From NCBI RefSeq assembly GCF_008362905.1, contig NZ_VFJB01000005.1, positions 124,001 to 188,000 of the forward strand: a DNA stretch of 64,000 nt. Direction: 5' to 3'. Shown in pieces: positions 26,752-53,563 of this stretch. This DNA is from Deferribacter autotrophicus. Its GTDB lineage: Bacteria; Chrysiogenota; Deferribacteres; Deferribacterales; Deferribacteraceae. How positions within the stretch are numbered: the stretch's first letter is position 1; each line of letters starts with the position of its first letter. The translations under genes were made by a program, and so were the position numbers. The notes under the pieces are model-generated. The model did not search any database. It saw nothing but the letters and a program-made list of their open reading frames with translations, and was not told the DNA's origin.

Positions 26752-26775
26752 GTAAGTAATAGTGGTAGTAGATAA

Positions 26776-27011
26776 CTGGCGTCACCCAATTTTTTCGGAG
26801 GCTGTTTTGAATTATAATTATATATCAATAAATTATGTTGAATTGTTTGTGGGAAAACATTTTTCTCATTCTCACAAAACGTCCAGTTTTGTTCCGAGGC
26901 AAGTTCCTCTAAAACCGCCATCCATGGCGGTTTTATGGGAACTTGAACCCGAAAAATGTTTCCCCACAAACTCATTAAAACAAAGTTTTGCAAGAAATGG
27001 GGTGACTCCAG
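26776..27011 (+). repeat. 236-bp structured intergenic element, copy 1
   Basis: The element is bounded by imperfect terminal inverted repeats (CTGGCGTCACCC at the left; the reverse complement of the right end reads CTGGAGTCACCCC). It is flanked by a perfect 10-bp direct repeat TAGTAGATAA (26766-26775 and 27012-27021). Inside is a nested fold. P1 is 21 bp with one mismatch (26845-26865 with 26951-26971). P2 pairs 26874-26880 with 26886-26892, and P3 pairs 26901-26907 with 26938-26944. P4 is a perfect 10-bp hairpin with TCCA loop (26911-26920 with 26925-26934). A second copy of identical length lies at 53178. No open frame looks coding. It fits a MITE-like or structured-RNA mobile element. The rest of the truB-rpsO gap holds only the direct repeats and a promoter. 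Confidence 0.9.
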
Positions 27012-27024
27012 TAGTAGATAAATA

Positions 27025-53177: not shown

Positions 53178-53413
53178 CTGGGGTTACCCATTTTTTTGAC
53201 ACAGAACAATAAGATGTTATTAATTTCAATAAATTACGCAAAAAAAACCAGAGATAAAATATCTTCCTCATTCTCGTGGCACATCCAGTTCCACTGCGAG
53301 GTAAATCCCTCTAAAACCGCCATCCATGGCGGTTTTATGGGGATTTAAACCCGGAAGATATTTTATCTCTGGCGTATATAAACAAGGTTTTGTAAAAAAT
53401 GGGGTGACATCAG
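53178..53413 (+). repeat. 236-bp structured intergenic element, copy 2
   Basis: It has the same length and layout as copy 1 at 26776. Terminal inverted repeats are CTGGGGTTACCC (53178-53189) and, at the right, GGGGTGACATCAG (53401-53413). P1 is a perfect 20-bp stem (53248-53267 with 53353-53372) whose sequence is unrelated to P1 of copy 1. P2 pairs GTGG (53276-53279) with CCAC (53291-53294). P3 pairs AAATCCC (53303-53309) with GGGATTT (53340-53346). P4 is identical to copy 1 (53313-53322 with 53327-53336, TCCA loop). The flanks ATATTTAT / ATAGTTAT may be a mutated target duplication. Confidence 0.9.
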
Positions 53414-53468
53414 ATAGTTATGTTTTCCAAAAACAATAATTTTATTTTAGATTTACACAAAAGCAAGA

Positions 53469-53553
53469 GATTGCTTCTTTCCGAGTCTGTCATTGCGATA
53501 TGTCCAAAAGCGACTCTCCCGACTGCCGTCGGGAGAGTCGGCAAGAAGCAATC
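53469..53553. repeat. Nested palindrome of the GATTGCTTCTT family
   Basis: The outer arms GATTGCTTCTT (53469-53479) and AAGAAGCAATC (53543-53553) are exact reverse complements. Between them lies a perfect 13-bp inner hairpin (53511-53523 with 53528-53540, CGACTCTCCCGAC and its complement) and the word TGTCATTGCGA. It lies downstream of pyrC and may also stop transcription. It belongs to the same dispersed family as 51984-52170 and 61306-61370. Confidence 0.8.
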
Positions 53554-53563
53554 TTATACTTTT

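What the first reader, a model, noticed from the sequence alone, without database searches (positions are those of the whole stretch)
26776..27011. Family of 236-bp elements with compensatory base changes in three stems
Copies at 26776-27011 and 53178-53413 are the same length and share ends and a central hairpin (AAAACCGCCA, TCCA loop, TGGCGGTTTT). In between, P1 (20-21 bp), P2 and P3 differ in sequence between copies but stay complementary in each: P3 is AAGTTCC/GGAACTT in one and AAATCCC/GGGATTT in the other; P2 is ACAAAAC/GTTTTGT versus GTGG/CCAC; the P1 arms are wholly different yet 20/20 and 20/21 paired. Two copies preserving pairing without preserving sequence implies selection on fold, as RNA or single-stranded DNA. 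I know of no described family matching it.
Basis: seen in the sequence. Interest (0 to 1): 0.82.

Follow-up and report, generated by a model that had tools for sequence, protein, structure and literature searches.

The report
Jumping DNA with a conserved fold
The two matching stretches are copies of a small "hitch-hiker" transposon present about 40 times in a deep-sea Deferribacter genome; its centre keeps the same three-stemmed RNA-like fold while its letters change, and one old copy that can no longer jump has been kept in front of an electron-transfer gene in two species, so the fold probably does a job.

Summary
Both copies belong to a ~236-bp MITE family: TIRs CTGGNGTCACCCC…GGGGTGACNCCAG, 8-11 bp target duplications, about 40 fold-bearing copies in this genome (contig sizes match Deferribacter autotrophicus). 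The TIRs are those of a 1467-bp IS4-like DDE element found in related genera but absent here. The middle is a three-way junction. Over 22 copies, 94.8% of stem cells pair; 28 of 50 pairs show double changes. Loops and junctions (83% identical) are conserved better than stems P1-P3 (64-69%) and linkers (44-48%). Pairs are kept on internal tree branches and decay on terminal ones. In the sister species the only copy has no TIRs; it lies between an FeS-protein gene and etfB, orthologous to the one TIR-less copy here, and is about 95% identical while its flanks fall to 50-57%. So the fold is selected apart from transposition, most likely as a cis-acting mRNA element; processing or stability is my guess. 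Strand evidence is mixed: co-orientation with genes is 26:4, but coreless MITEs show 7:1, and G·U does not exceed A·C. Eight identical IS110 genes, with a predicted bridge RNA matching the site, sit at one position in the fold. New variant of a known kind.

The parts
26766..26775 (.). left target-site duplication TAGTAGATAA of copy 1 (repeated at 27012-27021)
27012..27021 (.). right target-site duplication TAGTAGATAA of copy 1
26776..26795 (+). left terminal inverted repeat of copy 1 (CTGGCGTCACCCAATTTTTT)
   Evidence: same ends on the IS4-like element of G002
26796..26845 (+). left linker, poorly conserved between subfamilies (44%)
26846..26865 (+). P1 5' arm (20 nt), pairs with 26951-26970
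26866..26870 (+). conserved unpaired junction TCATT; IS110 elements insert between the positions matching 26869 and 26870 in eight other copies
26871..26898 (+). P2 hairpin (CTC stem plus variable stem) with conserved loop (A/G)TCCA at 26881-26885
26900..26907 (+). P3 5' arm CAAGTTCC, pairs with 26938-26945
26910..26935 (+). P4 hairpin TAAAACCGCC-ATCCAT-GGCGGTTTTA
26938..26945 (+). P3 3' arm GGAACTTG
26946..26950 (+). conserved unpaired junction AACCC
26951..26970 (+). P1 3' arm
26971..26991 (+). right linker, poorly conserved between subfamilies
26992..27011 (+). right terminal inverted repeat of copy 1
53178..53413 (+). copy 2 of the element (subfamily with P3 AAATCCC/GGGATTT); TIRs at 53178-53197 and 53394-53413
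53248..53372 (+). folded core of copy 2: P1 53248-53267/53353-53372, P2 53273-53300, P3 53302-53309/53340-53347, P4 53312-53337

Best explanation
The feature is a non-autonomous transposable element (MITE). Its ends come from an IS4-like DDE insertion sequence whose transposase is no longer in this genome. Its middle is a three-way-junction module with a 20-bp P1, a P2 hairpin and a P3-P4 hairpin, whose loops and junctions are conserved in sequence and whose stems are conserved mainly in pairing. SHOWN here: transposon ends and target duplications, copy number, covariation, decay of pairing on terminal branches, and conservation of one TIR-less copy between an FeS-protein gene and etfB in two species. 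INFERRED: the module works as RNA on the + strand when co-transcribed with its neighbours, as an intercistronic cis element. My preferred mechanism, a guess, is that P1 and P3-P4 form near-perfect duplexes that act as a double-strand endonuclease (RNase III-type) processing or stability site, with the conserved loops binding a partner. The etfB copy is most likely an old insertion that was domesticated.
For: TIRs with 8-11 bp duplications at many copies; both window copies are missing at the matching places in sister genome G001 (38 bp against 288 bp between flanking matches at copy 1). The parent IS4-like element (454 aa, DDE_Tnp_1) has the same ends in G002 and G008 and is absent from G000 and G001. 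Covariation: 28 of 50 pairs with double changes, 172 cells, 0/500 shuffles. Regional identity between subfamilies: linkers 44-48%, P1-P3 64-69%, P4 87%, unpaired core 83%. Tree events: pairs kept:broken 32:8 on internal and 22:32 on terminal branches, p=1.5e-4. Orthologous TIR-less copy upstream of single-copy etfB: core about 95%, flanking intergenic about 50-57%, genes about 80%. Its right flank aligns to a decayed MITE right end (0/300 shuffles against C8_55263, C2_56529 and C5_195379). Flanking genes co-directional with the element at 26 copies against 4 opposite, p=6e-5. Three of the four stem differences at the etfB site stay paired through G-U on the transcribed strand (read).
Against: Over all copies G-U does not exceed A-C (19 against 18), so no strand signature from pairing. 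Coreless MITEs with the same ends show a similar orientation bias (7 against 1), so the bias may belong to the ends or to insertion. No transcript data. No promoter- or terminator-like pattern was found inside either copy. Conserved loops are not needed by RNase III. Only two species carry the module.
Confidence: 0.55

Rival explanations
1. The fold is selected at the DNA level: the hairpins extrude as single-stranded or cruciform DNA and help the element transpose, replicate or bind a protein; RNA plays no part.
For: G-U and A-C departures are equally frequent; few G-U states on internal branches; the fold is kept in lineages that propagate.
Against: Other MITEs with the same ends transposed without any such core in this genome and in G002/G008. 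The module is conserved at the etfB site in a species with no TIRs of this type and no matching transposase.
Confidence: 0.2
2. Neutral quasi-palindrome correction: replication template switching copies one arm onto the other, so stems stay complementary without selection.
For: Many double changes without intermediates (30 double against 1 G-U on internal branches); 16 of 47 need a mismatched intermediate. The process is documented (e.g. PMC3820800).
Against: It does not explain why loops and junctions are conserved at 83% while linkers fall to 44%, nor the 95% conserved etfB copy. It may still contribute to how the stems changed.
Confidence: 0.12
3. An ordinary MITE whose fold is incidental, with copies all recent; the covariation reflects a few subfamily masters only.
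For: Cells count sequences, not events; there are about six subfamilies. MITE transcripts commonly fold well (PMC2229807, PMC10969869).
Against: 47 separate double changes inferred on the tree; internal/terminal contrast; conserved orthologous site without TIRs.
Confidence: 0.08
4. On origin only (compatible with the main explanation): the RNA was a stand-alone etfB leader element first and was captured by a MITE, instead of a MITE being domesticated.
For: The etfB copy is the only one in the sister species and lacks TIRs in both; it groups with one MITE subfamily, and the unrooted tree fits either direction.
Against: The right flank of the own copy resembles a decayed MITE right end at the right distance.
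Confidence: 0.25

Closest known systems
NEMIS / Correia elements (Neisseria)
   Same: Short TIR elements with target duplications, co-transcribed, folding into long stems; RNase III processing reported (PMC2229807, PMC10969869).
   Different: No sequence relation tested here; Correia elements are described as long stem-loops, here a three-way junction with conserved loops and stems that change in a compensated way; different TIRs, and duplications of 8-11 bp.
ERIC / IRU (enterobacteria)
   Same: About 127-bp MITE-like repeats between co-transcribed genes with an orientation-dependent effect on mRNA decay (PMC2229807).
   Different: Different sequence and shape; no effect has been measured for the present element.
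BOX, RUP, SPRITE (pneumococcus)
   Same: Dispersed folded repeats, thought to be mobilised by IS transposases, expected to act on co-transcribed genes (PMC3049150).
   Different: BOX is modular A-B-C; the paper's text held no mention of covariation or compensatory change.
MITEs of IS4-like DDE elements
   Same: Ends, linker motif TTCAATAA(G/A)TTA and duplication size match the 1467-bp IS4-like element of G002.
   Different: Other MITEs seen with these ends have no such structured core.
IS110 / IS621 bridge-RNA elements inserting in palindromic repeats
   Same: Explains the insertion found in eight copies at one site; IS621 inserts in REP elements (PMC11208160).
   Different: It is a passenger that uses the element as target, not what the element is.

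Membership tests
MITE (non-autonomous DDE transposon derivative) | terminal inverted repeats and target-site duplication | tested here: met
   TIR CTGGNGTCACCCC; TSD of 8-11 bp at many copies
MITE (non-autonomous DDE transposon derivative) | no transposase gene; ends shared with an autonomous element | tested here: met
   no transposase in the 236-bp forms; same ends on the 1467-bp IS4-like element in G002 and G008
MITE (non-autonomous DDE transposon derivative) | empty sites in a relative | tested here: met
   both window copies absent from matching places in G001
IS4 family (parent element) | IS4-type transposase by curated model | tested here: inconclusive
   DDE_Tnp_1 above cut-off; NCBIfam IS4 models hit best but below their cut-offs
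Known Rfam RNA family | score at or above a family's gathering threshold | tested here: not met
   no match in the window; only chance-level hits at the etfB copy
NEMIS/ERIC-type mRNA processing repeat | co-transcription with neighbouring genes and effect on mRNA | not testable with these tools
   only indirect: co-orientation 26:4, with a similar bias in coreless MITEs
IS110 family (the inserted element) | DEDD_Tnp_IS110 and Transposase_20 domains; curated IS110 model | tested here: met
   IS621 and ISCro4 structures are the solved relatives
IS110 family (the inserted element) | bridge RNA in the left end with target guides matching the site | tested here: met
   by sequence only: leader folds with internal loops (z -6.3); guides match own targets better than swapped ones on average, mean 15.8 against 11.0 positions

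The most novel reading that the evidence does not exclude
The three-way-junction module is a new class of cis-regulatory RNA with a specific partner (protein or ligand). It regulates etfBA in Deferribacter, and a transposon spread it to about 40 further places, in most cases in the sense orientation, giving those operons a shared control element.
Probability: 0.17. Interest if true: 0.85.

Novelty: new variant of a known kind. Interest (0 to 1): 0.62.

Why it matters
MITEs with folded transcripts are known, but evidence that the fold itself is maintained by selection is usually thin. Here one genome offers dozens of paralogues with compensated stems and conserved loops, plus an orthologous, immobile copy kept in two species. 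That gives a direct way to test whether a transposon-borne RNA fold was recruited by its host. The same element also shows a predicted bridge-RNA-guided IS110 that specialises on a conserved part of another mobile element, with sister IS110 elements carrying other guides at other sites.

Tried and rejected
Rfam at gathering and relaxed thresholds: nothing credible. Viral contigs: no match. Named genome collection: three pattern hits, at best a single-hairpin match when scored with the model. Phylum-wide model search: only this species and one congener. Intrinsic terminator or sigma-70 promoter: no site in the scan inside either copy. G-U/A-C asymmetry as proof of RNA on the + strand: not found. 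Orientation bias as proof of core function: weakened by the coreless control. I considered CsrA-type GGA loops (they would lie on the minus strand) and dropped them for lack of any test. I first read the etfB copy as the source that a MITE captured; the decayed right end made domestication the better reading.

Full report
What is there. The two 236-bp copies lie at the stated coordinates and share ends and a central hairpin. Each folds far better than dinucleotide shuffles. A search of the window's own genome gave 115 matching pieces, and a covariance model built from 22 copies found about 40 fold-bearing places there, plus one in the only congener held. Contig sizes fit Deferribacter autotrophicus SL50 (N50 319,692 in PMC6896113; G000:C1 is 319,692 bases) and, for G001, D. 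desulfuricans SSM1 (chromosome 2,234,389 bases). This naming is an inference from lengths.

It is a transposable element. The ends are inverted repeats, CTGGNGTCACCCCATTTTT on both sides (107 matches against 2 for the reversed pattern). Many copies have exact 8-11 bp duplications outside the ends; copy 1 has TAGTAGATAA. At the matching places in G001 both window copies are missing: at copy 1 the flanking matches are 38 bases apart there and about 288 here; at copy 2, 136 against 570, which includes a second repeat. No transposase with these ends was found in this genome. In relatives G002 and G008 the same ends bound a 1467-bp element with one 454-aa DDE transposase. It scores above the Pfam cut-off for DDE_Tnp_1 and best, but below cut-off, against IS4-family models. 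The protein is absent from G000 and G001. The left linker motif TTCAATAAGTTAT is shared by the MITE and that element. Other elements with these ends carry unrelated middles.

The fold. On 22 distinct rows and 50 pairs, 94.8% of cells pair; partners slid by 1-3 columns give 39-51%; 28 pairs have changes on both sides, 172 cells, with no shuffle of 500 as high. On a tree, 47 double Watson-Crick changes are inferred. Pairs are kept rather than broken 32:8 on internal branches and 22:32 on terminal ones (Fisher p=1.5e-4): lineages that went on copying themselves kept the fold, and single copies decay. Between subfamilies, identity is 44-48% in linkers, 64-69% in P1-P3, 87% in P4, 83% in unpaired core columns and about 81% in the TIRs. 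The parsimony counts depend on an approximate tree built from the same alignment and share its limits.

A conserved immobile copy. The only copy in G001 has no TIRs and lies between a gene for an FeS/CCG-domain protein and etfB. It is orthologous to C3:314128-314264 here, the only copy of this genome that has neither TIR and is not interrupted by another insertion. Over the core the two are about 95% identical, against about 50-57% in the flanking intergenic sequence and about 80% in the genes. etfB is single-copy in both. Three of four stem differences stay paired as G-U on the transcribed strand and one becomes C-A (read from the alignments). The own copy's right flank aligns to the right arm and a decayed right end of one MITE subfamily (0/300 shuffles against three of the members tried, 5/300 against a fourth; G001's flank does so weakly). 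I read this as an old insertion, domesticated; capture of a pre-existing RNA by a MITE is not excluded.

RNA or DNA. Flanking genes run in the element's direction on both sides at 26 copies and opposite at 4 (p=6e-5, with ORF-based gene calls, so crude). Coreless MITEs with the same ends show 7:1, so this cannot be credited to the core. G-U and A-C departures are 19 and 18, giving no strand. The etfB site argues for a cis role in a transcribed leader. Mechanism (RNase III-type processing or stability) is inference from the long duplexes with little sequence constraint and from the NEMIS and ERIC precedents (PMC2229807, PMC10969869).

A parasite of the element. Eight copies carry an identical 337-aa IS110 recombinase gene, all inserted after ..TTTTTCTCAT in the conserved TCATT junction, and a 77% relative sits at the same site. 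Its leader folds (z -6.3) and holds ACATTTTTCTCAT and TTGAGAATG, matching the left and right target. IS110 relatives here and in G010 (whose size fits Flexistipes, by my own knowledge) carry other guides and sit at GTCAT|TGCGAG, GTCAT|CTCGA or GTCAT|CCCGA sites. This fits the bridge-RNA mechanism (PMC11208160) and was not tested by experiment.

Limits. One genus with two genomes; no expression data; ISfinder not searchable; E-values of the model are rough.

Noticed in passing
L013 1594-2872; eight copies in G000 (e.g. C9:107205-108215): IS110 element with a predicted bridge RNA, inserted at one site of the MITE in eight copies; relatives in G000 and G010 have different guides and different matching targets.
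   Followed up: partly
G000 C5:240501-240838, C6:54653-54995, C6:230585-230918, C6:41600-41945, C8:117279-118888, C9:258766-259013: A second ~100-bp element (TTCAGGGTGTTGCAC..GTGCTACACCCTGAA) sits at the same point, after the P3 3' arm, in six copies from different subfamilies; why always there is unexplained.
   Followed up: no
window 53460-53560: Next to copy 2 lies a different repeat (GATTGCTTC..GTCATTGCGA..GAAGCAATC); related repeats recur at other fetched loci of this genome and of G010 and are the target of the other IS110 type.
   Followed up: no
G000 C6:191683-192098 and C9:91031-91447: Two related 416-417 bp MITE copies in which P4 and P3 are replaced by about 180 bp of other palindromic sequence.
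   Followed up: no
G000 C9:128180-128345: A copy with P3 and P4 deleted but P1 and P2 intact, next to a second type of IS110-like gene (399 aa) that has several copies.
   Followed up: no
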